DNA from: Caulobacter segnis ATCC 21756
GTDB taxonomy: Bacteria > Pseudomonadota > Alphaproteobacteria > Caulobacterales > Caulobacteraceae
Reading direction: 5' to 3'
Assembly (NCBI RefSeq): GCF_000092285.1
Contig: NC_014100.1
Location: 434,001 to 498,000 of the forward strand
DNA length: 64,000 nucleotides
In this document: positions 68 through 35,352 of the stretch, piece by piece
Layout of the letters: each line of letters starts with the position of its first letter
How positions within the stretch are numbered: position 1 is the stretch's first letter
Notes under the pieces: generated by a model
What the model saw: only the letters and a program-made list of their open reading frames with translations
Database searches by the model: none
Told to the model about the DNA's origin: nothing
Program-made: the position numbers and the translations under genes

Positions 68-433
68 ATGAGCGCTATTCTCACCGTCGATGACTCGGCG
101 AGCATTCGCGCGGCGATCAAGATCGCCCTGAGCAGCGAAGGCTACAATGTCACCGAGGCGGCCAACGGCGCCGAAGGCTTGGACAAGGCTTCCGCCGGCG
201 GCTTCGACCTGATCGTCACCGACCTAAACATGCCGGTGATGGATGGTCTGACGATGATCCGCCAGCTGCGGGCCAGGCCCGCCGGCGCCGGGGTGCCGAT
301 CATCTTCCTCACCACCGAGTCCGACGCGGACGTGAAGGCCGAAGCCAAGGCGGCCGGCGCCACTGGGTGGCTGACCAAGCCCTTCGAGCCCGACCAACTG
401 GTCCGGGTCGTCAAGAAGGTCCTCGCCAAATGA
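68..433 (+). CDS. cheY: CheY-type single-domain response regulator
   Basis: This 121-residue receiver domain is expected to take phosphate from the CheA encoded just downstream and act on the flagellar motor or as a phosphate sink. The acidic pair D8/D9, phospho-acceptor D52 (in TDLNMPVMDG), T82/T83 (FLTTES) and K104 (WLTKPF) are all in place, so it should be active. There is no output domain. The ATG follows a GGGGGAAAGA-like ribosome site. The stop overlaps the cheA start (ATGA), so the two are translationally coupled. It is the first gene of the che operon in this window; the promoter may lie to the left. Confidence 0.95.
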   Translation: MSAILTVDDSASIRAAIKIALSSEGYNVTEAANGAEGLDKASAGGFDLIVTDLNMPVMDGLTMIRQLRARPAGAGVPIIFLTTESDADVKAEAKAAGATGWLTKPFEPDQLVRVVKKVLAK

Positions 434-2397: not shown

Positions 2398-2409
2398 GCG
2401 GAGCGCGAC

Positions 2410-2898
2410 ATGACCCAACACGCCATCGAGGCTTTGACCTTTGATCTCCAAGGCGAGACCTTCGCCCTGGAAGCCGGCCTGGTCCGCGAGGTCCTGGACC
2501 TGCTGCCCGAGACCGAGGTGCCCGGCGCGCCGCCGTTCGTCGGCGCTGTCATAAACTTCCGTGGACGGATTATTCCGCTCGTCGACCTGCGCGTCGCCTT
2601 CGAAATGGAGCGCGGGGACCCGACCATCGACACCCGGATCGTCGTGATCGAGCATCCGCTGGACGGAGAGCCCGCCCTGATCGGTCTGCGCGCCGACAAG
2701 GTGCACGAGGTCACCACGATCACCCACGAAACCACGGAGGACGTTCCGCGGATCGGCCTTCGGTGGCGCACCGATTTCATCCGCCGGCTGGCCCGGCGCG
2801 ACGGGGACCTGATCGTCATCCCCGACCTTGACCAGATTTTCGCCGCTCGGGGCCAAACGGCTTCGGTCACTTCCCTCCATCCGACCCAAGCCCGTTGA
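2410..2898 (+). CDS. cheW: CheW coupling protein (first copy)
   Basis: A 162-residue CheW-domain protein that couples MCPs to CheA. The [21 protein letters not shown] opening region, [19 protein letters not shown] and the C-terminal DLDQIF segment are typical of the fold. It starts 12 bases after the cheA stop and is followed 17 bases later by the first mcp, so it sits in the same transcript. A second, diverged CheW lies after the third MCP (8523). Two CheW proteins in one cluster could pair with different receptors; that is inference. Confidence 0.93.
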
Positions 2899-2915
2899 GC
2901 GACTGGAGTAATCCC

Positions 2916-4583
2916 ATGCGTCTGACCATCAAACTGCAACTCGCCCTGGCCTTCGGGTTCGTCATCGTCCTGCTTCTGGTCGGAAATCTCTTCGGCCTGA
3001 ACGGGCTGTCGAAAGCTAACCGCGAAATGGACGCCATGATCAACGGGCCGGCCACGCGCTTGGAGGCCGCGCAGCAGCTGGAAATCCATCTGCTGAACAT
3101 GGTGCGCGCCGAGAAGAACATGATCCTGGTCGGATCGCCCGAAGAGGTGCGCAAGCTGGAGGCGTCATTCGACAAGGAGCGGCAAGCTTTCGACGCCCTG
3201 CTGGCCAAGGCCGAAGGCTTGGCGACGGCGGAGGGCAAGCCGAAGTGGGAAGCGCTCGGCTCAGCCTTCGAGCAACTGACCGACGTGCATGCCAAGGTGT
3301 TCCAGTTGAGCCTTGCGGGTGACGATGCGGCCGCTTCGGCGTTGTCGATGGGCGAGGGCCGCAAGGCCGTGACCGAGGCCGGCGCGCGCGCGGATGAGTT
3401 GGTCGAACTCTCGCAGGCCCAGCTGGAAGCCGCTTCGGCCAAGTCCGACGAGGACTTCGCGGCGACGCGCAACCTTCTGATCGGCGTCTCGATCGTCTCG
3501 CTGCTCGCCGCCATCGGCGCTGCTGTCTACATCGGCGCCGTAGTGAGCAAGGGGCTGGCCCGCGCCGGCGAGGCCGTCCGCACCGTCGCCGACGGCGATC
3601 TGACCAAGACGGTCGAGATCACCACGCGGGACGAGATCGGCGATCTGCTCGGCAACGTCAACGTGATGATCGAGCGCCTGCGCGGCATCGTGGGGGACGC
3701 CCTCTCGGCTTCGGAGAATGTCTCGTCGGGCAGCCAGGAGCTGTCGGCGACCGCCGAGCAGATGAGCCAGGGCGTGACCGAACAGGCCGCCGCGGCCGAG
3801 CAGGTCTCGGCCTCGATGGAAGAGATGGCGGCCAACATCAAGCAGAACGCCGACAACGCCAACCAGACCGAAAAGATCGCCCGTCAATCGGCGTTGGACG
3901 CCGAGACCTCGGGTCAGGCGGTCAACAAGGCCGTCGACGCCATGCAGACCATCGCCGAGAAGATCACCATCGTGCAGGAGATCGCGCGTCAGACCGACCT
4001 GCTGGCCCTGAACGCCGCCGTCGAGGCTGCTCGAGCGGGCGAACACGGTCGCGGCTTCGCGGTGGTCGCTTCGGAAGTGCGCAAGCTGGCCGAACGCAGC
4101 CAGAGCGCCGCAGCCGAGATCAGCGCGGTGTCCAGCGATACCGTCAAGGCGGCTCAGACCGCCGGCGAGATGCTGACGACGCTGGTGCCGAATATCCGCA
4201 AGACCGCCGAGCTGGTCTCGGAGATCAGCGCCGCGTGCCGCGAGCAGGACATCGGCTCCAGCCAGATCAATGAAGCCATTCAACAGCTGGACAAGGTCAC
4301 CCAGCAGAACGCCGCCGCCTCGGAAGAGATGTCGGCGACGTCGGAGGAGCTGGCGGCTCAGGCCGAGGAGCTTCAGACCTCGATTTCCTACTTCCGGACC
4401 GAAAGCGCTGGCGCCGCCCGTCGCGCCACGCCTCGTCCGCCGGTCAAGCGCGCCGCTCCGGCCGCCAAAGGGGCGGTCCGCACCCCGGTCGCCGCCCAGC
4501 AGGCGCGCGCCGCAGGCTTCGCCCTCGATCTGACCCAAGGCGGCCCTGACTCCGACGACGCCGATTTCCGTCAGTACGCGTAA
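2916..4583 (+). CDS. Methyl-accepting chemotaxis protein, 4-helix-bundle sensor
   Basis: A transmembrane chemoreceptor of about 555 residues. It has an N-terminal membrane helix ([15 protein letters not shown]), a periplasmic four-helix-bundle sensor, a second membrane helix near residues 180-205, a HAMP domain and a long signalling hairpin with the conserved tip ([18 protein letters not shown]). The ATG at 2916 is chosen over a TTG at 2895 because it follows GGAG and starts MRLTIKL, as in the third receptor of the cluster. The signalling half is almost identical in DNA to the next gene. The tail ends DFRQYA, which fits the aromatic-x-x-aromatic form of CheR tether peptides. Confidence 0.93.
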
Positions 4584-21594: not shown

Positions 21595-21671
21595 GGCCCG
21601 GTAGCTCAGCAGGATAGAGCAGCGCTTTCCTAAAGCGAAGGTCGGGGGTTCGAGTCCCTCCCGGGCCGCCA
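21595..21671 (+). tRNA. tRNA-Arg (anticodon CCU)
   Basis: A 77-base tRNA. The acceptor stem is GGCCCGG (21595-21601) paired with CCGGGCC (21661-21667), followed by discriminator G and an encoded CCA. The D arm is GCTC...GAGC, the anticodon loop TTCCTAA gives anticodon CCT, and the T arm is GGGGG-TTCGAGT-CCCTC with one G-T pair. It reads AGG codons. tRNA genes are common integration sites, and the island with a recombinase gene begins just downstream, so its 3' end is a candidate attachment site. Confidence 0.96.
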
Positions 21672-21857: not shown

Positions 21858-23799
21858 ATGGCGTCTTCAACGAAAAGCGGGCCCACTGCTGGTTCAGAGT
21901 CTGAGCGGCGCGGTCGGAAGCCGGAGCCGATAGAAGACCGCCCCGCGCCGTTATGGTCGGAGTGGATCGACCCGGCAGGCTTTTCAGAAGCTCTCGACCT
22001 GCATATGCGCCGTCACGGCGACACCGGCTACAGATTGCAGAAGGCCCTTTCTGCGCTGGGGCCAACAGTGAACGTGACGACATTGAGATTGTGGGCGGCG
22101 GGGCTCGAAGACGCCCGGTGACGCTTCGAGCTTGCGAACCTTGGAGCGGATAGAGGCTCGATACGGTCTTCCTCCAGGTTACTTTCGGGTCAAGCTCCCG
22201 TCGACTGGTAAGGCAGTCGCTGGTCATCACTTACCGAACCTCAGCGCACCCGAGCGTCGTCGTCTCGCCTGGCACCTTCCTCGCGACTTTGATCGGCTGC
22301 CACGGGCTAAACAGCAAGAAATCGTCAGTTGGGTCCGTAGCGTCATAATCTCGGGATCTACAGATTATCGCCGCTATCAAGCCGGCGCAGCGCGACAACG
22401 ATTTTCGGTTCGGTTCTCTAGTGCGCCTGGGCGAGTCCGAGAGAAGCCGATATCACGAGAAGATCGCGCGGAAGACCCGTTGGGCATCGTCGCCGCGCCC
22501 TATCCGCTCAATGAAGAAATGGCCGGACTGTTGGCCTTTAAAACCGCGACCCTGAGCGCTCGTGGAGTGCAGCGTTCCGGAGTTTGGGGACCTGAGACTG
22601 CATCGCTGAAGGCTGAACATCTGGGCTTGCTATTTGGGGCTCTAGTAGCGGCGCCGGCCAGCGAAATCCGCGGTGCAGGTGTTGCCCCTCACCAACTCAC
22701 ATTCGCGCTGCTCGCCTTCCCCTCGATCTGGGATTGGTACCTTGAGTGGCGCCGCGCCAAGCGCGGCTTCTATACAGGGTGGGAAATCGAGATGCTTATG
22801 CTCTGCGCGGCTCTCACCCGAGAGGGCGTGGGCTGGCTGAGGCAGAACCCTCAATTGGCCGAGCGGCTGACACCGATCAGCGGCTTGATATCTGAGACAG
22901 AAATCGGCGAGGCGCGCGACAATTGGAGCGCCGCGTGTGATCGGGCCCGTCGCCATGCGTTGCATCGTGCAAAGGAGCTCTCTCGAATAGCCACGGTGCA
23001 TCGGGATCCTTTCGAACCCATCCTCGCAATTCTGGAATCCGACAGCCCGCTAAACGGATATCGCTTGATCACCGAAGAGATACTCCGTCGTGCGCCCAAC
23101 CCGCGCCGATACCCCGTCCCGGCGGCTGAGTCCTGTCGGGCCTTCCTGATGCTTCGGTTTGGACTACACTTGGGCGTTCGACAGAAGAACTTGCGTCAGT
23201 TGCTCGTCTGTCCACGCGGCTCGATGCACTCCTCGGAACGCCGTCTCGAGACGTCAAAATGCGGCGAGCTACGATGGAACGACCGGGGGAAAGTATGGGA
23301 AGTTTTCATACCAGCCTCCGCATTCAAAAACTCAGGCTCTTCCTACTTCGGTCGGCAACCATTCTGCTTAGCCCTAAGGGACTTGGGCGGGCTGTATGAA
23401 CAAATCGATATCTACTTGAATAAGCACCGGCCGCGCCTTCTCGGTGCGATGCCGGACCCCGGGACCTTCTTCGTAAAGACGGTGAAGGCGAACAGCAAAA
23501 GCGCGGCCTACGATCAGAACACGTTCTATGAAGCGTGGCGCCTCGCCATACAAAGATACGGCATTTTCAATCCATACACCGGTCGCGGAGCGGTGAAAGG
23601 TTTATTGCCTCATGGCCCTCACAACGTGCGCGATGTACTCGCCACGCACGTGCTCAAACAGACCGGCTCATACGAGCAGGCGAGTTACGCAATCCAAGAT
23701 ACGCCCGAGACTGTGGCCAAGCACTACGGCCGGTTTTTACCTAAGGACAAGGCCGCTCTGGCGGCTCAGATCCTCAATAAGGCTTGGGAGAACGTGTGA
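21858..23799 (+). pseudogene. Large tyrosine recombinase broken by a +1 frameshift
   Basis: The first frame (ATG 21858) reads into NVTTLRLWAAG and then stops at 22119-22121. The protein continues in the next frame as SKTPGDASSLRTLERIEARY. Removing one G from the GGGG run at 22100-22103 restores a single 646-residue protein. The catalytic set is visible in the C-terminal half: Arg in GLHLGVRQKNLR, H-x-x-R as PHNVRDV, and a Tyr in AKHYGRFLP. The region between (residues about 100-420) is unusually long for a phage integrase. The gene borders the tRNA, so it probably placed the island. A homopolymer sequencing error is an alternative to true inactivation, and a TTG start at 22132 could give a shorter product. 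Confidence 0.75.
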
Positions 23800-23922: not shown

Positions 23923-25677
23923 TCACGAGCCCCGCGGCGGATTCAGAAGTAAGAACCTCAAAAGCGGTAAAGTGTCATTTCTAATAATTTTCAACTTACC
24001 GCTATCGATTAAATCCCCCTCATGAACGACGCCATTAAGTTCCTTTAGGTGTTTTCCGAACTTCGTTCGAGCGGTAACGCATTCCCTCCTTGCCTCAACA
24101 GGGAAGTAGTCATCATTTTTGTTGAGCCAGTCTAGCGTTTGGCGAAATGTGGGGCGGAAGGCCTTCTTCTGCACTTCATCGAATGGGCGGCCTGCGGCGG
24201 CCTGCTCGTCAAACACGGCTTGCCTAACGCTCGCGTATTTTCCTGCCTTCTTGATATTCTCGAAGAGCGCAGCTTCGATCAGGGCGCGAAAGAGCATCGC
24301 TCCGGAGTAGCAGCGTTCGATGTCCAGATAGCGAGCCTCATACATTAGTGCGCGCACTTTCGGGTGAGTGAGCTCAACTTCGCACTCCGGGAGAAGCGTC
24401 AGCCAATTTTCGTTGTGATCGCTCGCGTTCGGCACCTCAGAACCAGTCGAGGAAGAAGCTCCGGTGCCCGCAGTTGCTCCGTCCTCTCCGGACGCACGGT
24501 CCTTCCCGGACTTGGCCTTTCCTCGAGGCTGATTGCCACCACTCTTCGCTCCAGCCTTTGAACCTGATTTACCGGCTCGATCCTTTCGGGCCTTGCGACC
24601 CTCAGTTTTGTAGGTCTCTGCGAAAGCCTGAAGCTTGTCCCGAACCTCCCGGAAAGCGGAGGAGCTTACGTCGATGGTCGACTTCTTCGTGTCCCAGGGG
24701 AGCTTGCCCGCATCTTCGGCGACGAATCTAACCCAACCGACAAATCCATAGTATTCTTGGTGCCAGCTAGCCGTCCAACCAAGTTCCGGCTCGCGAACCG
24801 CGATGCGGATGATGCGATCATTACAGACGAAATACCAACCGTACTGATCCGTCAGATCTCCGATCACATCGCGATCATAACCGCTTTCGTCTGTGAGCCT
24901 GTAGGCCTCGTGCATTCCGGCGTCTACGAAAGCCTCACCTCCATCGGGCAACTGAAAATGCGATGCCTGAATGGCCACGGGTCCAGTCCGGCGGAGGCGC
25001 GGCCCGAACCCCTTGACGGGTTCCCCCTGAACGCTAATGCGCAGCCCCTTGGCGATGTACAGTCCGTAACGCCGGGAAAGAGAGTTTAGGACTGCTTCTT
25101 TCCAACCCCCATCCGCCAGCTCCTGCCGGACGCTGCTGCTAAGATCACTGATGCAAACCAACATCTTGCGGCGGCCCGAGGTGGGAACTCGATCCGCTTG
25201 GAGTTGTCGGCTATCGTTTCCGAAGTCCTCCTCCGAAAACCGAAACTTTGCAGCAAAAGAGCCTGTGTCAGTTGAAATTGCATACGATGCGCCAAGTCTA
25301 AGCAGGGCGCGCTTGAGTCCAATACCGAAATGGCCAATCCCATATCGATGGGAAGACAGAGACCCAGTCACGAATACGCGGCTTGTTAGGGCGGCTTCTT
25401 CGACGCCGGAGCAATTGTCTAGGAGGGAAATCGAATTGGAGCCAAACCTCAATGCAATTGAGTATCCTGCGTAGCTAGACACCAAGCCGTACTTATCGAG
25501 CGATGCGCCCGCCATTGAGAGAATTCGGTCTCTGGCCGCGTCAATCGCGTTGTCGATAAGGTCGTAGAGGCTCTCAAGCGTAGTGATGTCTTTTGTCAGT
25601 ACGCTTTGCAGATAGCTCGCGTCGACACCTCGATTGATGAGAATGGTCGATGCCGCAGCGCCGTTCGGATCGTCGAT
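23923..25677 (-). CDS. GHKL (MORC/MutL-like) ATPase A, non-canonical or lost start
   Basis: The first in-frame ATG (25515) would begin after the ATP-binding N box. The open frame continues upstream through LIDNAIDAARDRI, the N box, back to an ATC codon at 25675-25677 that sits six bases after GGAGAG. Starting there gives 584 residues. Further motifs are LLDNCSGVEE (G1-like) and GIGHFGIGLKRALL (G2). A Lys/Gly/Ser-rich linker (about 305-365) leads to a helical C-terminal domain ending with an LNGVVHEG motif, faintly like HEPN/DUF4145 proteins. It is the last gene of the minus-strand operon. Either the start is a rare non-AUG codon or an ATG was mutated. Confidence 0.68.
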   Translation of the reverse strand: MDDPNGAAASTILINRGVDASYLQSVLTKDITTLESLYDLIDNAIDAARDRILSMAGASLDKYGLVSSYAGYSIALRFGSNSISLLDNCSGVEEAALTSRVFVTGSLSSHRYGIGHFGIGLKRALLRLGASYAISTDTGSFAAKFRFSEEDFGNDSRQLQADRVPTSGRRKMLVCISDLSSSVRQELADGGWKEAVLNSLSRRYGLYIAKGLRISVQGEPVKGFGPRLRRTGPVAIQASHFQLPDGGEAFVDAGMHEAYRLTDESGYDRDVIGDLTDQYGWYFVCNDRIIRIAVREPELGWTASWHQEYYGFVGWVRFVAEDAGKLPWDTKKSTIDVSSSAFREVRDKLQAFAETYKTEGRKARKDRAGKSGSKAGAKSGGNQPRGKAKSGKDRASGEDGATAGTGASSSTGSEVPNASDHNENWLTLLPECEVELTHPKVRALMYEARYLDIERCYSGAMLFRALIEAALFENIKKAGKYASVRQAVFDEQAAAGRPFDEVQKKAFRPTFRQTLDWLNKNDDYFPVEARRECVTARTKFGKHLKELNGVVHEGDLIDSGKLKIIRNDTLPLLRFLLLNPPRGS

Positions 25678-25835
25678 GTTCTTCTCTCCAGTCGATCTCA
25701 GCCACTAGCGGCAATTGCCCAATGCACAGCCGCAACCTCAACGTTGGCTCGAATGCGATAGTCGGCAGCGGAAGAGATGCTGAAAAGAAAGCCACCAACT
25801 GACCTACGCAACATAGCCTGACGGTCCGGGTACTC

Positions 25836-26783
25836 TTAAGTCACGACCTGCAAAAAGGCCGGATACCTCTTGTAGTGTTCACAATAGGCAGCAAGTTGCT
25901 CCTCCTCCAAGTCGAAGCCTAAACGGCGCAACGCAGCCCGTGAAGGTGGCCGCGCGGCGGGAAGGAGTCTCTGTAGGGCCCCGACTTCCTTCAGCGTTAG
26001 AGGTGGTGCCTGAATGGGTATGGTCGGAGAGCCCGGCCATGTCGGCTCATTGACCGTCGCGCGAATAGCAGGGCGCGCTCCGAGGGCGGGAAGTACACCG
26101 CCGACGGTCAGCATTGGAGCGCCATCTCGGTACGACATGTTGAATGCCGGGACGTATCCGCCCGGACGGCCTAGCTGCACCGCCTTATCGATGATGTACG
26201 CCCTAAGGGAAGTTGAGAGGGTTTCTACGATGCTCTCGGCCTCGAAATTCGACGCGCCGTAATCTTGCGAAACGGAGTCCCCCAGTAGTCCTCGGATATA
26301 CGCTTCACGCACGCGTGGGCTTTTGCCCAAACTTCCAGGTGATGCATTTATCGTTATGAGCAATATCGAGTTCTCTGACGCGTGCGTCATGACTGTCACG
26401 ATGTCGTTGAGCACTTCCTGGGAAAGGGATCTATCGTAGTCTAGCCATACGATCCATTGCTTGGAGCAAAGTACTTCGTTGTTTGCCAGGTTCCCCAGGA
26501 CGGCGTTCGAATCGCCTTCCTCGACCTTCACACTCTTAAAGGGGGCATTGAATCGAGCTCGAGCAGCTCCTATCGCCTTATTTTCAATCGATATCATATC
26601 GGTAATGCCCAACCGCCGGTGGGCAAGAATAAAGTCAGTGAACCAGACAGAGCCGAAGCCTATGTACAGGCTTGTGCGAAGAGGTACGACGCGATCAATT
26701 TGATCCAGGCCATCAAATACGATCTGTCTTTGAATAGCTTTATTGGGCCTGAGGCTGTAATTCACAGTGTCGAAAGACGCCAT
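25836..26783 (-). CDS. Rossmann-fold, methyltransferase-like protein between two GHKL ATPases
   Basis: A 315-residue protein I cannot name with certainty. Its N-terminal half resembles a class I SAM-dependent enzyme: LYIGFGSVWFTDFILAHR could be motif I, MISIEN motif II (acidic end of strand 2), and QWIVWLDYDRSLSQ motif IV. The C-terminal third is Pro/Ala-rich, then helical (ALRRLGFDLEEEQLAAY). Its ATG directly abuts the TAG of ATPase B, so the two are translationally coupled. That coupling argues for a working complex with the GHKL proteins. The substrate could be nucleic acid or a small molecule; no DNA-methylase catalytic motif such as NPPY or PPCQ is seen. Confidence 0.6.
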   Translation of the reverse strand: MASFDTVNYSLRPNKAIQRQIVFDGLDQIDRVVPLRTSLYIGFGSVWFTDFILAHRRLGITDMISIENKAIGAARARFNAPFKSVKVEEGDSNAVLGNLANNEVLCSKQWIVWLDYDRSLSQEVLNDIVTVMTHASENSILLITINASPGSLGKSPRVREAYIRGLLGDSVSQDYGASNFEAESIVETLSTSLRAYIIDKAVQLGRPGGYVPAFNMSYRDGAPMLTVGGVLPALGARPAIRATVNEPTWPGSPTIPIQAPPLTLKEVGALQRLLPAARPPSRAALRRLGFDLEEEQLAAYCEHYKRYPAFLQVVT

Positions 26784-28130
26784 CTATTCGACCTCACCCA
26801 CAAGTTCACGATAGGCGTAGTCGAATGAGCGGTTTCCAACCTCTCGAGCGGATAGGCCGGGATCGCCAAAGCCTTGGGCTAGGTCACGAACGAGCCGCTG
26901 GAGCTTCGGATATTGGATCGTGATTTCTTTTACGCGGGGCGCGCTTGTTAGCGTAGGATAGCTGAGCGTCTTATTGATGGGCAGATCAAACGCGGGGACA
27001 TACTTTGCCCCACCCTCCAACGACTTTGCCTCTTCGAGGGCCGATTTGCGCTTGTTCGTGTAATCGATCCAAGCCCTTGTCAGCTCGATCATTCGCCCGA
27101 TCGCGCCCTTATAGACCTGCCTATCGGGGTCTATGCTTCTCTTCGTGGTAGTCAATGGCAGGTCTTCGGTCGACTTTGCAGAGAAGTGAACAATACCTAT
27201 GAAGCCGCGGTACTGAGGGTGCCAACGATTTTTGCCTTCGTAGCCCCAGCCAGTGATGATCGACTTGTCGGCAGCGAGCACCAGGCGATCGTTACAAAGG
27301 ACATACCATCCCGAGCGATCTTCCTTCTCCGCGTCTTCATCGGGATCGTCCGACTCAGATGGTTGCGCCGCCATGCCGGAGATCAACTCCACCCGCACGT
27401 CTCTAAAGGTAAAATCAGCTCGGAAGGGCTTAATCGTATCGCTCTGCAATATTCCAAACTCGAATGGCCTAATCGCTTTTCCGTTTACCTTAATGGTGAG
27501 GCCATGAGATATAAATCGAGAGTAATCTCGCCCAAGAAGTCTGCGCATATTATTTTCAAAACCGGGGGTGGCAAATACAGCCGCCACCTCGTCGTTTAGA
27601 TCCTTAACCACGATTTCTACGCCGGGTTTCGATAGCGGATCGGATGGACCTAGATCGAAATCCCAGGTTGGTGACTTCAGCCACTCCGGGACATCGATAG
27701 TCACTTCGAATGGCTCAGGCGCTGCCCCTTTCTTTGGAGGGCGGTTCGTGCTCCGAACGGATACCTGATTCCCGAGCTTGAAAACTGCTCGCTTCATACC
27801 GATACCGTAAACGCCGATGGTATAATCCTCGGGATCGTCATCCTCACGCCGGCCGAACGTAAATGCATAGTTGATCGCATCGTCTAGCGATATGCCGCCG
27901 CAGTTATCGACAATGCTGAAGCCATCTTCGGAGAAGTGGATCTCGACCAAAAATTTAGAGAAATCTATCTTTCCGTCGATGGTAGACGCAGGAGCGCCGA
28001 GCATCGAGCGTGCGCCATCTAGCGAATTGTCTACCAGGTCTAGAATGCAGTCTTCGAGCCGAATGTCTCGCGTAATGGTACGAACGAAAAATGCCTTAGT
28101 GGGATCGGCTTTTACGCGCGTGGCTTCCAT
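26784..28130 (-). CDS. GHKL (MORC/MutL-like) ATPase B
   Basis: A 448-residue protein with a complete GHKL ATPase: N box LDLVDNSLDGARSM, G1 SIVDNCGGIS, G2 YTIGVYGIGMKRAVFKLG. A transducer-like region follows with YVLCNDRLVLAADKS and HPQYRGFIGIVHFSAK, which parallels CNDRIIRIAVRE and YYGFVGWVRFVAEDAG in ATPase A. The two ATPases are therefore related, but B lacks A's Lys-rich linker and C-terminal domain. Such proteins dimerise on ATP binding and can clamp DNA; prokaryotic MORC/MutL-like ATPases are known next to restriction-modification genes. The ATG at 28130 is 108 bases after the HNH gene. Confidence 0.82.
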   Translation of the reverse strand: MEATRVKADPTKAFFVRTITRDIRLEDCILDLVDNSLDGARSMLGAPASTIDGKIDFSKFLVEIHFSEDGFSIVDNCGGISLDDAINYAFTFGRREDDDPEDYTIGVYGIGMKRAVFKLGNQVSVRSTNRPPKKGAAPEPFEVTIDVPEWLKSPTWDFDLGPSDPLSKPGVEIVVKDLNDEVAAVFATPGFENNMRRLLGRDYSRFISHGLTIKVNGKAIRPFEFGILQSDTIKPFRADFTFRDVRVELISGMAAQPSESDDPDEDAEKEDRSGWYVLCNDRLVLAADKSIITGWGYEGKNRWHPQYRGFIGIVHFSAKSTEDLPLTTTKRSIDPDRQVYKGAIGRMIELTRAWIDYTNKRKSALEEAKSLEGGAKYVPAFDLPINKTLSYPTLTSAPRVKEITIQYPKLQRLVRDLAQGFGDPGLSAREVGNRSFDYAYRELVGEVE

Positions 28131-28238
28131 ATCGATGCCCCCTACAACTTAAGCGGACAATGGCTCAGCTAGCCTCGTCGCCGCAAGCCTTCTCATTTTA
28201 ATGGTACCCAAATCGGCCGTGACGAACCTCCAGGCCGC

Positions 28239-29156
28239 TTAACCGATGCGATGAATTTCCCGGAATCTAGATCGGTGGCGGCTCAAGAACTGCTCCGCCG
28301 GCCAATGCTGTTGGTTAGCCGGGAGAGACAAGCGATCACCGCTTGAGCGAATTAGTGCGAGGAGACCAGTTGGTAGTCCCTGCGTGCCGATGAGTATGCC
28401 GTGATCTTCGCCGATCGAGATCAAGTGACGATCGAATAGCCAGTGAAGGGTGCCTGATAGCGCGATGCCGTTTGGCACGATGTCAGGTCCACCCTCCGCT
28501 ACGGAAACGATGTGGGCGCCTTGAACTTCATAGTTTCCTCCGCGGTCCTTCAGGCTAAGGCCGCTGATCGCGCACCTCCAATGATATGCCGCGCCCACAG
28601 CACGTCTGAAATTTCGATCTCTGAGCTTCTTGTTGACCAGCAGCGATATGATCGCTCTTTCCCGTTGTGCCGCTGATGAAGCGGCCAGGCGTGAAGCAAG
28701 CAGGTCGAGCTCCGCGCGGTCCAAGTCGCCCTCGCCCGGAGAATCCCATAGATTTGAGAATCCTGCCTCAACTATACTTAGGAAATCCCCATCTTCCAAA
28801 GGCCGGACGGATTTTCCGCGGAGGTATAGGCCGAGTTGTGAGACGTTTTCCAAATCTCTCAGCGCGCGCTCGGAATATCTACCTTCTCTTAACCATGGAA
28901 CGGGTTTCTCGAAGGGCGAATATCGCTCAATAATCGCGTAGTAATGCTTATCCAACATTGGGTCCGGCACAATAGCCGCAATTTTAGCTGTGGCGAAATA
29001 CGCGAGATTTCCACCCGCTGCGCGCGGCTGACGGAAAACAATCCAATCATCGACGCAGGCTTCCATCACAGGAAGGTATCTGGATGGAAAATGGTATCGG
29101 GAGGATATGTCGTCGTCATATGCAGACGATACTTTTGCATCTAGAACCGCCTTCAC
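28239..29156 (-). CDS. HNH endonuclease with N-terminal recognition-like domain
   Basis: A 305-residue protein. The C-terminal half is an HNH nuclease of the HNH_2 type (PF13391): CAISGLSL, then VQGAHIVSVAEGG, PNGIALSGTLHWLFDRH, giving His, Asn and His of the motif. The N-terminal 110 residues (DDWIVFRQPRAAGGN, FATAKIAAIVPDP) look like a small beta-barrel of the EVE/PUA kind that in other nucleases reads modified bases; this is a weak inference. The GTG start follows AGGGGGG. It lies nine bases after vsr and probably acts as the nuclease of this modification cluster. Confidence 0.75.
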   Translation of the reverse strand: MKAVLDAKVSSAYDDDISSRYHFPSRYLPVMEACVDDWIVFRQPRAAGGNLAYFATAKIAAIVPDPMLDKHYYAIIERYSPFEKPVPWLREGRYSERALRDLENVSQLGLYLRGKSVRPLEDGDFLSIVEAGFSNLWDSPGEGDLDRAELDLLASRLAASSAAQRERAIISLLVNKKLRDRNFRRAVGAAYHWRCAISGLSLKDRGGNYEVQGAHIVSVAEGGPDIVPNGIALSGTLHWLFDRHLISIGEDHGILIGTQGLPTGLLALIRSSGDRLSLPANQQHWPAEQFLSRHRSRFREIHRIG

Positions 29157-29165
29157 GGTACCCCC

Positions 29166-29594
29166 CTATTTATCTCTCCGCTTCAGAAGACCGAATACGC
29201 GACTTAACCGCTCCGATATCGTCTTGAGGTCGCGCGTCTCGCACTCCCAAATCGTCTCAACGTTCCAGCCAAGAGCTCGAAGTTGACTTGTTACGCGGCG
29301 GTCCCGCTCGATGTTAGCTTCGAATTTTGCGCCCCAGAATTCCTGCCGGGACTTGGGCATGGAGGCCTTACGACACCCCTCGTGCCTATGCCAAAAGCAC
29401 CCATGAACAAAGATAGCCACCTTGTGTCGGGGGAACACCAAGTCAGGCTTTCCAGGCAGGTCGGATCGATGCAAACGAAATCGCAAGCCCATCGAGTGGG
29501 CGATTGATCTGACGCGAAGCTCCGGGGTTGTATTCTCGCTTCTGACCCGCGACATCAACCAAGATCTTCGGTCTTCAGTCAGGCGATCAACCAC
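29166..29594 (-). CDS. vsr: Very short patch repair endonuclease Vsr
   Basis: A 142-residue Vsr protein, which nicks next to T:G mismatches that arise by deamination of 5-methylcytosine. It has the SRVRSENTTPELRVR opening, metal-binding Asp in LPGKPDLVFP, and FVHGCFWHRHEGC with the Cys/His zinc and catalytic residues. It starts five bases after the dcm stop, the usual partnership. Its presence supports a true C5-cytosine methylase next door. Length and motifs are normal. Confidence 0.94.
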   Translation of the reverse strand: MVDRLTEDRRSWLMSRVRSENTTPELRVRSIAHSMGLRFRLHRSDLPGKPDLVFPRHKVAIFVHGCFWHRHEGCRKASMPKSRQEFWGAKFEANIERDRRVTSQLRALGWNVETIWECETRDLKTISERLSRVFGLLKRRDK

Positions 29595-29599
29595 CGATT

Positions 29600-30922
29600 C
29601 TACTCCGCCGCGATATCGATGTCGGGACCAGAGGACGTGGGAGTATGATTTTCGGCGGTACTTGAACTATTATCAGTTACAATTTTCAGGCAGCTTTTTA
29701 TGGCATTGAATACCGCCTCCGCCATTATTGGCGAAACGCTGTTCCCTATCATCCGGAAGCTATGCCATATTGTCGGGTGAAAGACGTGATCGTCTGGGAA
29801 GCCTTGCAGTCGCGCAGCCTCCCGTACCGTTATGACGCGGTTGAATTTCGGGTGAATGGGACGCACCGCTTGATATGATCCGCGGTCGCTACCAGTTCCG
29901 GCGCGCAGTGTTGGACATTGCCCATCTGGCTTCAATCGCGGGTGCCGCCCAACCAGATCGAACGCTCCGGGTGCGACTTCAGAGAAGCGTCGCACCACGG
30001 CAGGTGTGTGGGCGGTGGCCATGTGGCCGGTGAAGACGCAATCTTTCGCTCGCAACTTTGATGCGTAGCTGGAAGGCTCAGCTTTGCCCTCGATCTTCCA
30101 GCGATCGAAGCCCTGCAGGCTTTCAGAGGGAGTCATTTCGACAGCACTCTCTAGATCTTCAATGGCCTGCTGAACTGTCGCAGCGGGGCGGCGTAGTTTC
30201 AGCAGCTCCGCCCTGTCGAAGGTCGCTCCAATATCCTTGCGTATTCCAACTACAAATATTCTATTCCGAACCGTAGCTGCACCAAAATCAGCGGCGTTGA
30301 ATACCTCCGGCTCGGAGACCTTATAGTCCTCTTGGACGCTCGCGATCGCGTCCGTGAGCAGGGGGAGGGAGTCTGAATACTTAAGGCCTCTAACATTCTC
30401 CATGATGAAGAATGCGGGTTTTACTTCCTTCACCAGGCGGAAAAAGTGACCGAGAAGGAGGCGTCGCGGATCTGACACATCGCGACGACCGATGTCGCTA
30501 AACCCCTGACAGGGGGGGCCTCCGAAAAGGCCGAACACCTCGTCACCGACTTCCGCGCGAATCTTATCGCCGGTCAGCTCTCCGACGTCCTCATGCCGCA
30601 GTTTCGTTTGGGGAAAGTTGATCTCGTACGAAGACGTCAATGTCTTATCGAGATCGTAGGCCACGGCAACTTCGAAACCAGCGGCGTGAGCACCCCGGGA
30701 AAACCCCCCTGTGCCACAAAACAGCTCAACCAGCTTCATCGCATCGTTATCCACCACCCTGGCGAGCAGTCGTCCGTCATGTTGCCGCGATTCGATAGCC
30801 TCCAGCCGCAATTTTGCGACTTCAGTCCGGGAACCGCCAAAAAGGTTCCTCTGCACCGGGAATTGGCGGAGGTCCAGAGGTATGTTTCTGAACGTCAGGC
30901 CGCTCAAAGCCAAAGTAGGCAC
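29600..30922 (-). CDS. DNA (cytosine-5) methyltransferase
   Basis: A C5-cytosine methylase. Motif I is LFCGTGGFSRGAHAAGF, motif IV GGPPCQGFSDIG (catalytic Cys), motif VI ENVRG, motif VIII RNRIFVVG, with AARLQGFPDDHVFH (motif IX region) and MIGNSVSP (motif X). The frame is open from a GTG at 30922 (440 residues), but ATG 30739, giving MKLVELFCGTGG, is the usual start for the family and has GGTGG upstream. The extra 61 residues may be non-coding leader or a real extension. It is the first gene of the minus-strand operon and diverges from the gene at 31019. The target sequence cannot be read from the protein. Confidence 0.92.
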   Translation of the reverse strand: MPTLALSGLTFRNIPLDLRQFPVQRNLFGGSRTEVAKLRLEAIESRQHDGRLLARVVDNDAMKLVELFCGTGGFSRGAHAAGFEVAVAYDLDKTLTSSYEINFPQTKLRHEDVGELTGDKIRAEVGDEVFGLFGGPPCQGFSDIGRRDVSDPRRLLLGHFFRLVKEVKPAFFIMENVRGLKYSDSLPLLTDAIASVQEDYKVSEPEVFNAADFGAATVRNRIFVVGIRKDIGATFDRAELLKLRRPAATVQQAIEDLESAVEMTPSESLQGFDRWKIEGKAEPSSYASKLRAKDCVFTGHMATAHTPAVVRRFSEVAPGAFDLVGRHPRLKPDGQCPTLRAGTGSDRGSYQAVRPIHPKFNRVITVREAARLQGFPDDHVFHPTIWHSFRMIGNSVSPIMAEAVFNAIKSCLKIVTDNSSSTAENHTPTSSGPDIDIAAE

Positions 30923-31018
30923 AGATAGCCGGCGAGAGCGAAATGGAGTTGGTTAGATTGTTTGGCTAGGGGAGCGCTCTGGAGGAATCTCTCGCGGAGC
31001 GTAGCCCTAAGGTGACCG

Positions 31019-32065
31019 GTGGTTGATCAGCCGGACGTCGCGGGCTCCGACGGAAGCTACGATAACTTAGGGTCTACCGTGATCGTTTCGAGTCATCCGA
31101 TTCAGCGCCATGGGCGCGAGCTCGGGAACATCTTTGAACTTTTGGGCAGCGACGAAAATGCCATGACGTCTGCCTTCGGCTGGTGCCTGGCACGTGCTCC
31201 CGCCTTTCTAGACGCCGTTGCACGTCGGCTGGGCGGGGGCGTTCCGGGACCGACCGCTACTATTCTGCTGCAAGAGCGGGAGCCGGGGCTTGGCATAACC
31301 GACGTCGAAATTCGCGCTCCGGGCCGTGTCGCGTGGATTTTCGAAGCCAAAGCCGGCTTTAATCTGCCGAGCGAGGCTCAGCTCATGCTCTACGCCGCGC
31401 GACTAGCTGCAAAAGATCCACAGGCGGAGCGAAAACTTGTGGTGCTCGCTCGCGCTGACCGGCGCGAACTGATCCTCAGGGCAAGAGCTCCACGGTCAGT
31501 GGCAGGCGTCCCAGTTCAGGTCTTCTCGTGGGGCGAGGTCATAGCTTGCGCACGTGAAGCCTTATCGAAAGAAGGCGCTGAAGGTCGGCGACTCCTGCGC
31601 GATCTAATCGAATATTTGGGGAAGATCCTTGGGATGCAGATTGCTAGTTCGAACGAGGTTTACGTTGTCGCTTTGAACCGAGAAACCTTCGGCGGCGGAC
31701 AGACGACCTTCCTGGACGTCGTAGAAAAGTACGGACGCTACTTCCACCCTGTTGGGGATGGATGGCCGCTAAATCCGCCGAACTACCTAGGTTTTCGCTA
31801 CGATGGTCGCCTGCAGTCTGTCCATCATGTTGACGGCTATGAGGTCATAACCACTTTCACGGATCACTTCCCTGGGATCACGGAGGGTGAGATCCGACCC
31901 CACTTCCTGTATACGCTCGGACCACCCATTCGCCCCTCAAGCGATGTTAGAGCCGGACCGAGCGTTCTCCGTGCCGCACGCGTACGTGCTCACATCGACC
32001 TGCTACTTACCTGCGCCACTATTACCGACGCAGTTAAGCTCAGCAAAGAGCGCGCTTCCAACTGA
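31019..32065 (+). CDS. Putative PD-(D/E)XK nuclease divergent from the methylase
   Basis: A 348-residue protein of unknown family. Residues about 105-140 contain ITDVEIRAPGRVAWIFEAK, which fits the D...(E/D)xK core of PD-(D/E)XK nucleases (Asp in ITDVE, Glu-Ala-Lys in FEAK). The N-terminal part (GRELGNIFELLGSDENAMTS) is a conserved-looking helical opening. The C-terminal half (YRNxF-free, with YLGFRYDGRLQSVHHVDGY) is of unknown fold. GTG 31019 is taken as start. It faces dcm across 96 bases, a common layout for a restriction enzyme and its methylase. It could be the restriction subunit or an accessory nuclease. Confidence 0.62.
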   Translation: MVDQPDVAGSDGSYDNLGSTVIVSSHPIQRHGRELGNIFELLGSDENAMTSAFGWCLARAPAFLDAVARRLGGGVPGPTATILLQEREPGLGITDVEIRAPGRVAWIFEAKAGFNLPSEAQLMLYAARLAAKDPQAERKLVVLARADRRELILRARAPRSVAGVPVQVFSWGEVIACAREALSKEGAEGRRLLRDLIEYLGKILGMQIASSNEVYVVALNRETFGGGQTTFLDVVEKYGRYFHPVGDGWPLNPPNYLGFRYDGRLQSVHHVDGYEVITTFTDHFPGITEGEIRPHFLYTLGPPIRPSSDVRAGPSVLRAARVRAHIDLLLTCATITDAVKLSKERASN

Positions 32066-34191: not shown

Positions 34192-35352
34192 ATGAGCGTC
34201 TACAAGCCCGCCAAGAGCCGCTTCTACCAGTACGACTTCCAGTACAAGGGAAAGCGCTACACGGGGTCGACCAGTGTCGCGACCATGCGCAAGGCCGAGG
34301 AGGTCGAGCGCAAGGTTCGGGCCGACGTCGCACTCGGCCTCTACGACGACCAGGCCGGCATGACGCTCGACGAGGCCGCCGGACAATGGTGGGAGGAGGT
34401 CGGCAAGCACCTGCGCACGGCCCGCGACGTCGAGCGACGGCTCGAGATCCTGCTGCGCCTGATGGGACCCGAAACCCGCCTCGTCGACATCACTACCCGC
34501 AAGGTGTCGACGGCGATCGAGAAGCGCCGCAGCGAGACCTTCCAGAAGGCGCCCGACCGACCGGGCAAGCCCGCCAAGCGCTACCCCATCAAGAACGCGA
34601 CAGTGAACGGCGACATCATCGGCATGCTGCGGCGGATCCTGCGGCGGGCCGAGACCATCTGGGAGGTGAAGCCCATCCCCAAGATCAGCTGGCGCGCGCT
34701 CACCCTCAAGGAGCCGGAACCGGAGGTGCGGCTCTACACCGAGGCCCAGCAACAGGCCTGGCTCGACCAATGCGACCCTGTCACCCGCACCGCGCTCAGC
34801 CTGCTGCTGACCTACGGTCTGCGGCTTGGCGAACTCTTCTTCCCCCCCTCGGCCTTCGACCCCTCAGGGCCGCGCCTGGTGATCAATAAGCGGAAGCGCG
34901 GGGCCTTGCTGCTGCCGCTGCGCCAGGACCACGCCGACGATATCGCCGCCCGGGTCGCAGTGGCGATTAATGAGGGTCTGGAGACGGTCTGGTTCGAGGA
35001 GCTGGTAATCCCGGCCGCCGGCAAGCGGGAGCGGCGGGTGATGTATATCCCGCTGACCTATGGCGGCATCCAGGCGCGCATGCGCACCGCCGCCAAGCGG
35101 GCAGGGCTCAACATGCCGCGCCTGATCCACGGCACGCGTCATCACGCCGGGACGATGATGCTGGCCAAGAGCGGAAACCTGAAGCTGGCCCAGCAGTTGC
35201 TGGGCCATGCGGACATCAAGTCGACGATGCGCTATGCTCACGCCATGGACGGGGCGCTGCGCAATGTCCTCGAGAATTTGGACCCCGTCCGCAAGTCCCC
35301 TGATAGTCCCGAACCGGTCGTTCGGCGCAGGTCCCGGAGCATTAAGTCCTGA
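34192..35352 (+). CDS. Tyrosine recombinase / phage-type integrase
   Basis: A 386-residue integrase. The arm-binding N terminus is KSRFYQYDFQYKGKRYTGST, and the core-binding region is near residues 60-170. The catalytic residues are Arg in LLTYGLRLGEL, H-x-x-R as LIHGTRHHAGT, His in LLGHADIKST and nucleophile Tyr in MRYAHAM. All are intact, unlike the recombinase at 21858. GC content and codon use are like the host rather than the defence block, so it may belong to a separate element. The ATG follows the excisionase-like gene by nine bases. Confidence 0.92.
   Translation: MSVYKPAKSRFYQYDFQYKGKRYTGSTSVATMRKAEEVERKVRADVALGLYDDQAGMTLDEAAGQWWEEVGKHLRTARDVERRLEILLRLMGPETRLVDITTRKVSTAIEKRRSETFQKAPDRPGKPAKRYPIKNATVNGDIIGMLRRILRRAETIWEVKPIPKISWRALTLKEPEPEVRLYTEAQQQAWLDQCDPVTRTALSLLLTYGLRLGELFFPPSAFDPSGPRLVINKRKRGALLLPLRQDHADDIAARVAVAINEGLETVWFEELVIPAAGKRERRVMYIPLTYGGIQARMRTAAKRAGLNMPRLIHGTRHHAGTMMLAKSGNLKLAQQLLGHADIKSTMRYAHAMDGALRNVLENLDPVRKSPDSPEPVVRRRSRSIKS

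What the first reader, a model, noticed from the sequence alone, without database searches (positions are those of the whole stretch)
23923..32065. Methylase-Vsr-HNH operon with two GHKL ATPases and a methyltransferase-like protein
Six minus-strand genes (dcm, vsr, HNH nuclease, GHKL-B, a Rossmann-like protein, GHKL-A) are tightly spaced, with a PD-(D/E)XK-like gene diverging from dcm. Prokaryotic MORC/MutL-type ATPases are known beside restriction-modification genes (Iyer, Abhiman and Aravind described such links). Two different GHKL ATPases flanking a coupled methyltransferase-like protein is a composition I cannot match to a named defence system. It could be a restriction system with ATP-driven clamps.
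Basis: partly seen in the sequence, partly recalled or inferred. Interest (0 to 1): 0.75.

Follow-up and report, generated by a model that had tools for sequence, protein, structure and literature searches.

The report
Two-MORC cytosine-methylase defence island
A mobile stretch of a Caulobacter-type chromosome carries a DNA-cytosine methylase with two different MORC-like ATPases and a methyltransferase-like partner, probably a variant restriction system against phages built from two modules that also travel separately, one of them in filamentous phages.

Summary
All six genes are there, and they form two separable modules on one methylase. Module 1 is GHKL-A plus the 315-aa protein, which is Pfam Methyltransf_35 (MT35). 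Of 57 loci collected by MT35, 55 have GHKL-A upstream on the same strand and 52 a Dcm within 6 kb. MT35 and GHKL-A diverge in step (r=0.96), MT35 and Dcm much less (r=0.35). A nuclease of the two families looked for is near in 11 of 57. A GHKL-A–MT35–Dcm cassette sits in filamentous Pseudomonas phage PfAC20, whose paper calls its methylase an incomplete system. Module 2 is Dcm–GHKL-B, without MT35 in 6 of 9 fetched GHKL-B loci; its C-terminal domain resembles that of PD-Lambda-5_A, a phage-tested family. Both ATPases carry the MORC signature. GHKL-B is mis-started: its N-box lies upstream of the ATG, and an ATC is the likely start. Best reading: Dcm-guided, MORC-driven restriction, possibly nuclease-optional. 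The MORC–R-M link is known (Iyer 2008); I found no description of the MT35 module or the two-module composition in the searches named.

The parts
29600..30922 (-). dcm, C5-cytosine DNA methylase; likely true start ATG at 30739 (about 379 aa)
   Evidence: PF00145 195.6 bits from residue 62; PADLOC MTase_II 4.7e-93 from residue 62
29166..29594 (-). vsr, very-short-patch-repair endonuclease
   Evidence: TIGR00632 147.4 bits, over cut-off 97.85; Vsr within 6 kb in 31 of 57 MT35 loci
28239..29156 (-). HNH_2 endonuclease, candidate restriction nuclease
   Evidence: PF13391 35.7 bits; HNH part also like PT-DNA_restrict (77.5 bits, cut-off 180) and TagI (E 0.0012); relatives in 5 of 57 MT35 loci, window included
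26784..28130 (-). GHKL-A, MORC-type ATPase (GHKL + S5 domain), 448 aa
   Evidence: HATPase_c_3 39.5 bits; MORC motif GWYVLCNDRLV, present in 117 of the 120 best-listed homologues (of 3623 found); N-box, G1, G2 residues and Lys330 in 47 of 47
25836..26783 (-). MT35, Methyltransf_35 protein, 315 aa, starts on the base after the GHKL-A stop
   Evidence: PF20553 290.8 bits; GHKL-A upstream on the same strand in 55 of 57 loci
23923..25677 (-). GHKL-B, second MORC-type ATPase with PD-Lambda-5_A-like C-terminal domain, about 584 aa, likely ATC start
   Evidence: N-box upstream of listed ATG; ATC with SD-like GGAG at the same distance in window and L089, and 6 of 7 changed codons synonymous in the 11 codons before the first canonical start of L089; MORC motif GWYFVCNDRII, 95 of 99 homologues; PADLOC PD-Lambda-5_A
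22132..23799 (+). integrase-like gene of the island (tyrosine-recombinase-like C-terminus by eye)
   Evidence: 59% identical to an ORF in the Caulobacter Dcm-GHKL-B locus L089; no Pfam hit
21595..21671 (+). tRNA-Arg(CCT), left edge of the low-GC island and presumed integration site
   Evidence: ARAGORN; GC 0.52-0.60 inside against mostly 0.65-0.70 outside; a tRNA-Arg(CCT) lies 4 kb from GHKL-B in L090; no direct-repeat copy found

Best explanation
It is a horizontally acquired restriction-type defence island in which two independent MORC-ATPase modules share one cytosine methylase. Dcm marks the host's own sites and probably supplies the sequence specificity. MORC-type ATPase dimers (GHKL-A with MT35; GHKL-B alone) act against DNA that lacks the mark: ATP-driven closure on unmethylated DNA either blocks it directly or brings in a nuclease (here HNH; a type II REase in some loci; none recognised in many). 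MT35 is a near-obligate partner of GHKL-A, most likely a SAM-binding methyltransferase-like subunit that lets the ATPase read or set methylation status. GHKL-B adds a PD-Lambda-5_A-type C-terminal effector or targeting domain. Vsr repairs T:G mismatches left by 5-methylcytosine deamination (known Vsr role). Shown: gene identities, conserved pairing, exchangeable Dcm, modularity, MORC motif, conserved ATPase and MTase-like residues, the mis-called start, carriage on phages. Inferred: anti-phage function, clamping, discrimination by methylation, MT35's activity, the exact ATC start.
For: 55 of 57 MT35 loci have GHKL-A upstream on the same strand (46 with a gap of -4 to 0 nt) and 52 of 57 have Dcm within 6 kb. 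In the 44 loci, apart from GHKL-A (43), Dcm (37) and Vsr (25), no neighbour family is in more than 5. Distances: MT35-GHKL-A r=0.96, MT35-Dcm r=0.35, 47 loci. GHKL-A-MT35-Dcm cassette in phage PfAC20; pair and Dcm in 8 of 8 IMG/VR contigs found, three of them (L072-L074) with Vsr. Dcm within 4 kb of GHKL-B in 9 of 9 fetched loci, adjacent in 8, six without MT35. A divergent GHKL-A/MT35 pair lies in a DISARM operon between an MmeI-type R-M gene and drmA. MORC motif in 117 of 120 GHKL-A and 95 of 99 GHKL-B against 8 of 1095 shuffles. PD-Lambda-5 affected plating or plaque size of all but one phage tested (PMC9519451) and shares a C-terminal domain with GHKL-B relatives (E 1.4e-54 for L081).
Against: No phage, methylome or ATPase data. 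The loci were collected with MT35 or GHKL-B as query, so the constancy of the query itself is by construction; only that of its partners is a finding. I looked for two nuclease families only, and type II nucleases are very diverse: L011, counted as without, has an HSDR_N-like protein 131 nt upstream of its Dcm, L070 has a PDDEXK_7 protein, and small unassigned ORFs remain in L078, L079 and PfAC20. L030 has MT35 with neither GHKL-A nor Dcm; L026 and L039 have the pair but no Dcm. GHKL-B of the window matches PD-Lambda-5_A models only weakly (E 2.5e-4) and that of L062 not at 1e-5. MT35 has Tyr instead of the usual acidic residue of MTase motif I. Profile matches to solved MORC structures are weak (E about 0.001-0.003) and level with HtpG.
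Confidence: 0.5

Rival explanations
1. Ordinary type II restriction-modification (Dcm with HNH as restriction enzyme, Vsr as repair) in a defence island; the two ATPases and MT35 are accessory factors that tune or assist cleavage.
For: Dcm-Vsr-HNH runs as one tight block with 5 and 9 nt spacing; five of 57 MT35 loci carry this HNH and six carry a relative of L013's type II REase near Dcm (PADLOC match for L013 only); [quoted passage not shown]
Against: MT35 with Dcm occurs with neither of these two nucleases in 42 of 57 loci, including filamentous phages; the six GHKL-B loci without MT35 gave no match to either nuclease. Unrecognised nucleases weaken this, and the collection by MT35 favours MT35.
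Confidence: 0.25
2. Abortive infection coupled to R-M, as proposed for PD-Lambda-5: loss of methylation or a phage signal lets GHKL-B (and perhaps GHKL-A/MT35) kill or arrest the cell, with Dcm acting as antidote.
For: GHKL-B relatives share a C-terminal domain with PD-Lambda-5_A; the authors describe PD-Lambda-5 as a compacted prophage version of an RM+Abi system (PMC9519451); Dcm within 4 kb of GHKL-B in 9 of 9 fetched loci; a rare ATC start would keep GHKL-B low (the effect of ATC is recalled).
Against: The matches cover only the C-terminal part of the PD-Lambda-5_A models (starts 246-327 of 428-503), so the N-terminal half differs; no toxin family was recognised in the C-terminal domain.
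Confidence: 0.15
3. A DNA-repair cassette: MORC ATPases replace MutL as partner of Vsr to mend 5-methylcytosine deamination caused by Dcm.
For: Vsr in 31 of 57 loci; Iyer et al. compare MORCs with MutL in very-short-patch repair.
Against: 26 of 57 MT35 loci have no Vsr match within 6 kb; presence on phages and in a DISARM operon fits defence better.
Confidence: 0.05

Closest known systems
Prokaryotic MORC / paraMORC restriction-modification operons (Iyer, Abhiman and Aravind 2008, PMC2292703)
   Same: GHKL+S5 ATPase with the MORC motif beside dcm, vsr and HNH; operons with two GHKL families and operons without helicase are both mentioned there
   Different: No Methyltransf_35-like partner in the three of four text parts read (figures not held); about 70% of their MORC operons have an SFII helicase, none was seen here; a PD-Lambda-5_A-like C-terminal domain is not mentioned in those parts
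PD-Lambda-5 (Vassallo et al. 2022, PMC9519451)
   Same: Methylase plus a protein whose C-terminal domain is like that of GHKL-B relatives; anti-phage activity shown for PD-Lambda-5
   Different: PD-Lambda-5_A has another N-terminal half (ParB-like by eye, not confirmed by Pfam) instead of the MORC ATPase; two-gene form as recalled and from PADLOC names, without MT35, Vsr or HNH
HEF_HK / Response_reg_2 two-component-like pairs (Bellieny-Rabelo et al. 2021, PMC8011034)
   Same: HATPase_c_3 protein paired with a second protein next to dcm, vsr and HNH_2
   Different: None of the window proteins scanned hit those Pfam families (PF19192 named in the abstract; PF19191 recalled) at E 0.1; the partner here is PF20553
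DISARM
   Same: A divergent GHKL-A/MT35 pair lies inside a drmD-MmeI-type-drmA-drmB-drmC operon of Microvirga terrae
   Different: No DISARM core gene among the window proteins scanned (Dcm matches DrmMII only as a general methylase); 1 of 57 loci
GHKL-Shedu VcSduA / paraMORC3 (PMC12137116)
   Same: GHKL ATPase whose mutation abolished anti-phage activity (passages)
   Different: Nuclease domain DUF4263 fused to the ATPase; no Pfam hit to DUF4263 in GHKL-A or GHKL-B

Membership tests
Prokaryotic MORC family | GhXhhpXXRhl motif in the S5 domain | tested here: met
   GHKL-A GWYVLCNDRLV, GHKL-B GWYFVCNDRII; 117 of 120 (best-listed of 3623) and 95 of 99 homologues, 8 of 1095 shuffles
Prokaryotic MORC family | Intact GHKL ATP-binding motifs | tested here: met
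   GHKL-A D34, N35, D38, D75, G78, G79, G109, G111 and K330 in 47 of 47; GHKL-B D51, N52, D55, D96, G127, G129 and K341 invariant in the 23 rows of A3
MORC R-M operon | Neighbouring DNA methylase and endonuclease | tested here: met
   dcm, vsr, HNH; Dcm in 52 of 57 MT35 loci
MORC R-M operon | SFII helicase (about 70% of their operons) | tested here: not met
   none among the ten window proteins scanned; the paper lists a helicase-less minority
PD-Lambda-5 | C-terminal domain of PD-Lambda-5_A | tested here: met
   window E 2.5e-4; 19 of 23 rows of A3 match one model at E 0.1; L081 1.4e-54, L011 9.6e-37, but L062 none at 1e-5
PD-Lambda-5 | PD-Lambda-5_A over its full length | tested here: not met
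   best stretches start at model positions 246-327 of 428-503
Methyltransf_35 (PF20553) | score over Pfam gathering cut-off | tested here: met
   290.8 against 27 bits, whole length
Active class I SAM methyltransferase (MT35) | GxG motif I, acidic motif II, acidic motif IV | tested here: inconclusive
   G42 45, G44 47, E67 45, D115 47 of 47, but Tyr40 in 47 of 47 where motif I usually has an acid (recalled motif); Methyltransf_24 touched by 3 of 31, best E 0.026; no structure could be predicted
Type II R-M | cognate restriction endonuclease for the Dcm site | not testable with these tools
   HNH present; target unknown
Anti-phage defence system | reduces phage plating | not testable with these tools
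   no experiment

The most novel reading that the evidence does not exclude
GHKL-A+MT35 (and separately GHKL-B) are themselves the restriction arm of a nuclease-independent R-M system: Dcm recognises its unmethylated sites on incoming DNA and loads a MORC ATPase that closes on and compacts or silences that DNA, with MT35 as a methyl-status reader. This would be a living bacterial counterpart of eukaryotic MORC silencing, carried even by filamentous phages.
Probability: 0.2. Interest if true: 0.88.

Novelty: new variant of a known kind. Interest (0 to 1): 0.62.

Why it matters
Prokaryotic MORCs were tied to restriction-modification from gene order in 2008. In the searches made I saw no experiment on a bacterial MORC itself; the nearest is VcSduA, a paraMORC3-type GHKL-Shedu fusion. 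This work reduces the link to two minimal cassettes, GHKL-A-MT35-Dcm (about 3.4 kb in PfAC20) and Dcm-GHKL-B (about 2.8-3.0 kb), small enough to clone and dissect, and it makes a sharp prediction: the ATPase (with MT35), not the nuclease, is the indispensable arm. If right, it would show how a MORC ATPase acts on unmethylated DNA and bear on where eukaryotic MORC silencing came from. It also suggests a role for a Pfam family for which no paper was found and re-reads a phage cassette.

Tried and rejected
PD-(D/E)XK-like gene 31019-32065 as a seventh component: no match in the 44 loci or the 24, no Pfam hit; rejected. HEF_HK/Response_reg_2 system: no hit; rejected. mza and Druantia as names for the whole: only the Dcm matches DruM/DrmMII models, as a general methylase, and one of 23 rows of A3 hits MzaB at 5e-5; rejected. 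Solved relatives of MT35: none at E 1. att repeats of the tRNA: none found. The right island edge was not settled (one search showed mainly about 130 bp of shared tRNA flank in same-genus genomes; no empty site was worked out). PfAC20's cassette DNA in E. coli genomes: no match in 'near' mode; more distant copies there were not sought. Literature: PF20553 in 0 papers. One search listed 11 papers and I opened one (PMC9519451); one search listed ten and I opened three (PMC8011034, PMC2292703, PMC12458937, the last without the words GHKL or MORC); one search gave one, none.

Rows dropped before counts: one search used 63 loci, 57 with MT35 (40 of genome contigs, 5 of relatives, 8 viral, 1 phage, 2 plasmid, the window). 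Left out as short, duplicate or without MT35: L001, L042-L061, L064, L066, L067, L069, L086-L088, L091-L103, among them two partial MT35 matches (L051, L052) and G489 (L099, L101), whose flanks were not fetched. L072 is probably the same locus as L009 and was still counted. One search dropped ten of the 57: L070, L072, L084 by hand, and L004, L024, L026, L030, L039, L040, L085, which lack a long enough ORF of one of the three genes. For L070 the script reported a nearer Dcm-like ORF that I did not check; the Pfam-confirmed Dcm is 5.6 kb away. L004 has only a 98-aa GHKL-A piece at the contig edge and counts as a miss. P0340 was left out of the GHKL-B motif count. G592, a weaker GHKL match without MT35, was not followed.


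Full report
WHAT IS THERE. The window is a 64-kb piece of a 4.66-Mb single-contig genome. Same-genus genome G013 has a 59,055-base contig with an MT35 locus, the length of the contig that genome contigs names Caulobacter sp. RYN_457, and same-genus G004 has a 5,659,202-base contig, the length given for a Caulobacter flavus protein; so the genus is probably Caulobacter in the GTDB sense (inference). From tRNA-Arg(CCT) at 21595-21671 to about 33 kb, GC falls from mostly 0.65-0.70 to 0.52-0.60. This island holds an integrase-like gene, the six finding genes on the minus strand and a diverging PD-(D/E)XK-like gene. No direct repeat of the tRNA end was found, so the right edge is open.

GENES. dcm, vsr, HNH_2, GHKL-A and MT35 (PF20553, 290.8 bits over its full length) are over their curated cut-offs; GHKL-B is a sub-threshold HATPase_c_3 (18 of 25 bits), probably because the listed ORF starts too late: the frame is open to 25704 and carries the N-box DLIDNAIDAA before the ATG. 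Relatives align upstream of that ATG. In the window and in the Caulobacter locus L089 there is no ATG, GTG or TTG early enough; the best shared candidate is an ATC (25677 in the window) with GGAG at the same distance upstream. A CTG inside the conserved segment is another shared candidate, but it would leave NRGVDxSY untranslated, and in the 11 codons before the first canonical start of L089, 7 differ and 6 of these are synonymous. So that stretch is translated; the exact start is inferred. In seven other GHKL-B-type loci the ORF script's first start is ATG (5) or GTG (2). That ATC starts are disfavoured by initiation factor IF3 is recalled knowledge.

A CONSERVED MODULE. MT35 has 436 homologues at E 0.001. 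Scanning genome contigs with an alignment of 31 gave 40 loci, from Alpha- and Gammaproteobacteria and other Pseudomonadota, Acidobacteriota, Gemmatimonadota, Chloroflexota, an actinomycete and a Bacteroidota MAG (record titles; the last, L030, is MT35 alone). With five loci from relatives, eight viral contigs, one phage, two plasmids and the window, 57 MT35 loci were tabulated: GHKL-A upstream on the same strand in 55 (46 at -4 to 0 nt; in L084 3 kb away with other ORFs between), Dcm within 6 kb in 52, Vsr in 31, the window-type HNH in 5, relatives of the L013 type II REase (PDLC03404) in 6, GHKL-B in 3. The five without Dcm are L024 (contig end, transposase next door), L026 (Fic and weak SIR2-like neighbours), L030, L039 (HNH present) and L085 (inside DISARM). 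In the 44 loci, neighbours clustered at E 1e-6 gave GHKL-A in 43, MT35 in 44, Dcm in 37, Vsr in 25, and no other family in more than 5. Since MT35 was the query, its own constancy is by construction.

CORE AND CARGO. In 47 loci, pairwise distances of MT35 and GHKL-A correlate at r=0.96, of MT35 and Dcm at 0.35, and of GHKL-A and Dcm at 0.32; none of 2000 permutations reached any of these. The pair has co-evolved; the methylase has largely been exchanged. In a draw of 190 genomes of the class, MT35 occurs in 2, the window's genome included, and strong GHKL-A matches in the same 2, with one weaker GHKL match in a genome without MT35. In the order, MT35 occurs in 10 of 398 genomes, 9 over the cut-off.

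MINIMAL FORMS. In 42 of 57 loci Dcm is present with neither HNH nor the REase looked for, and in 20 there is no Vsr match either. One of these 20, L011, turned out to have an HSDR_N-like protein beside Dcm, so 19 is an upper limit, and other nucleases may be unrecognised: only two nuclease families were searched for throughout, and only some neighbours were scanned by Pfam or PADLOC. The cleanest case is filamentous Pseudomonas phage PfAC20: genes 1-3 are annotated ATP-binding protein, hypothetical protein (MT35) and cytosine-specific methyltransferase; gene 4 (105 aa) has no Pfam hit, and a second short cytosine methyltransferase is annotated further on (ORF9). The paper that describes it counts one cytosine methyltransferase, without saying which in the passages seen, and calls the system incomplete (PMC11878078). 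L076-L078 share gene order with each other, and L078 has Zot-type inovirus genes, though two of its ORFs (179 and 206 aa) hit no PHROG. In L079 a tail-hub gene lies beside Dcm, pointing to a tailed prophage. Such cargo is rare in reference records: 1 of 50,697 phages and 2 of 72,556 plasmids.

THE SECOND MODULE. GHKL-B gave 100 homologues, 99 of them strong (only 7996 candidates were scored). Of the nine GHKL-B loci fetched with flanks all have a Dcm within 4 kb, adjacent in eight; six have no MT35 (L062, L080, L081, L082, L089, L090) and three have both modules (window, L011, L034). Full-length GHKL-B is in 2 of 398 genomes of the order; the other six genomes matched there are those with GHKL-A at MT35 loci. 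In the genus it is in 3 of 75. L089 also has an integrase 59% identical to the window's, and L090 has tRNA-Arg(CCT) nearby. The C-terminal domain resembles that of PADLOC PD-Lambda-5_A: window E 2.5e-4, 19 of 23 aligned members match one model at E 0.1, L081 at 1.4e-54, L011 at 9.6e-37, L062 not at 1e-5, and only over the C-terminal part of the models. A full-length PD-Lambda-5_A relative looks ParB-like at its N-terminus by eye; Pfam did not confirm this. [quoted passage not shown] coli, and its authors call it a compacted RM+Abi system (PMC9519451, passages and section 8).

MORC IDENTITY. Iyer et al. (PMC2292703; parts 1-3 of 4 read) define MORCs by GhXhhpXXRhl in the S5 domain. It is in 117 of the 120 best-listed GHKL-A and 95 of 99 GHKL-B homologues, 8 of 1095 shuffled proteins and 0 of 120 MT35. 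The best solved relatives are MORC2 (GHKL-A, E 0.001) and HtpG then MORC3 (GHKL-B, E 0.0016 and 0.0028), so the structures alone do not decide. ATP-binding residues are invariant in 47 GHKL-A. Iyer et al. already note MORC plus paraMORC1 with DNA methylases, and paraMORC1 with HNH, without helicase, so two GHKLs in one R-M operon is not new as such.

MT35. GxG (45 and 47 of 47), an acidic residue after strand 2 (45) and Asp115 (47) are kept, as expected of a class I methyltransferase (motifs recalled), but the usual acidic residue of motif I is Tyr40 in 47 of 47. Only 3 of 31 members touch another MTase family, weakly. Its substrate is unknown; I favour a SAM-dependent subunit of the ATPase complex.

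MECHANISM AND RIVALS. The pattern (paired ATPase and MT35, exchangeable methylase, nuclease not constant, phage carriage, insertion in a DISARM operon) argues that the MORC module is the acting arm and Dcm the address label. Whether action is cleavage through a recruited nuclease or direct blocking is open. The rivals are plain type II R-M with accessories, Abi-type killing like PD-Lambda-5, and repair.

Noticed in passing
window 25675-25677 (minus strand) and L089:9369: Likely ATC start codon of GHKL-B with an SD-like GGAG at the same distance; gene callers truncate the protein and lose its N-box. In L089 the frame also continues directly from the Dcm stop (TGA), so readthrough is a second possibility there.
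   Followed up: partly
L085 (Microvirga terrae plasmid pR24_2), 6582-8996: Divergent GHKL-A/MT35-like pair inside a DISARM operon between an MmeI-type R-M gene and drmA.
   Followed up: partly
L083 (PfAC20), 280-3711: Filamentous phage cassette that looks like a whole GHKL-A-MT35-Dcm module; the phage's paper counts only a methyltransferase and calls it incomplete.
   Followed up: yes
window 31019-32065 (+): PD-(D/E)XK-like gene (D..E-A-K pattern by eye) diverging from dcm; no Pfam hit, not linked to the module elsewhere; possibly an independent defence gene.
   Followed up: partly
window 34192-35352 (+): Second integrase (Phage_integrase, 52 bits) just beyond the low-GC stretch, suggesting a second or composite element.
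   Followed up: no
L025, L005, L022: The window-type HNH recurs immediately next to Vsr in these MT35 loci, so Dcm-Vsr-HNH may itself be a travelling unit.
   Followed up: no
L070:12310-17970: An MT35 locus of the same genus with Vsr, a PDDEXK_7/DUF2357 protein, an 834-aa protein with only sub-threshold AAA-type hits, and Dcm: a McrBC-like neighbour set.
   Followed up: no
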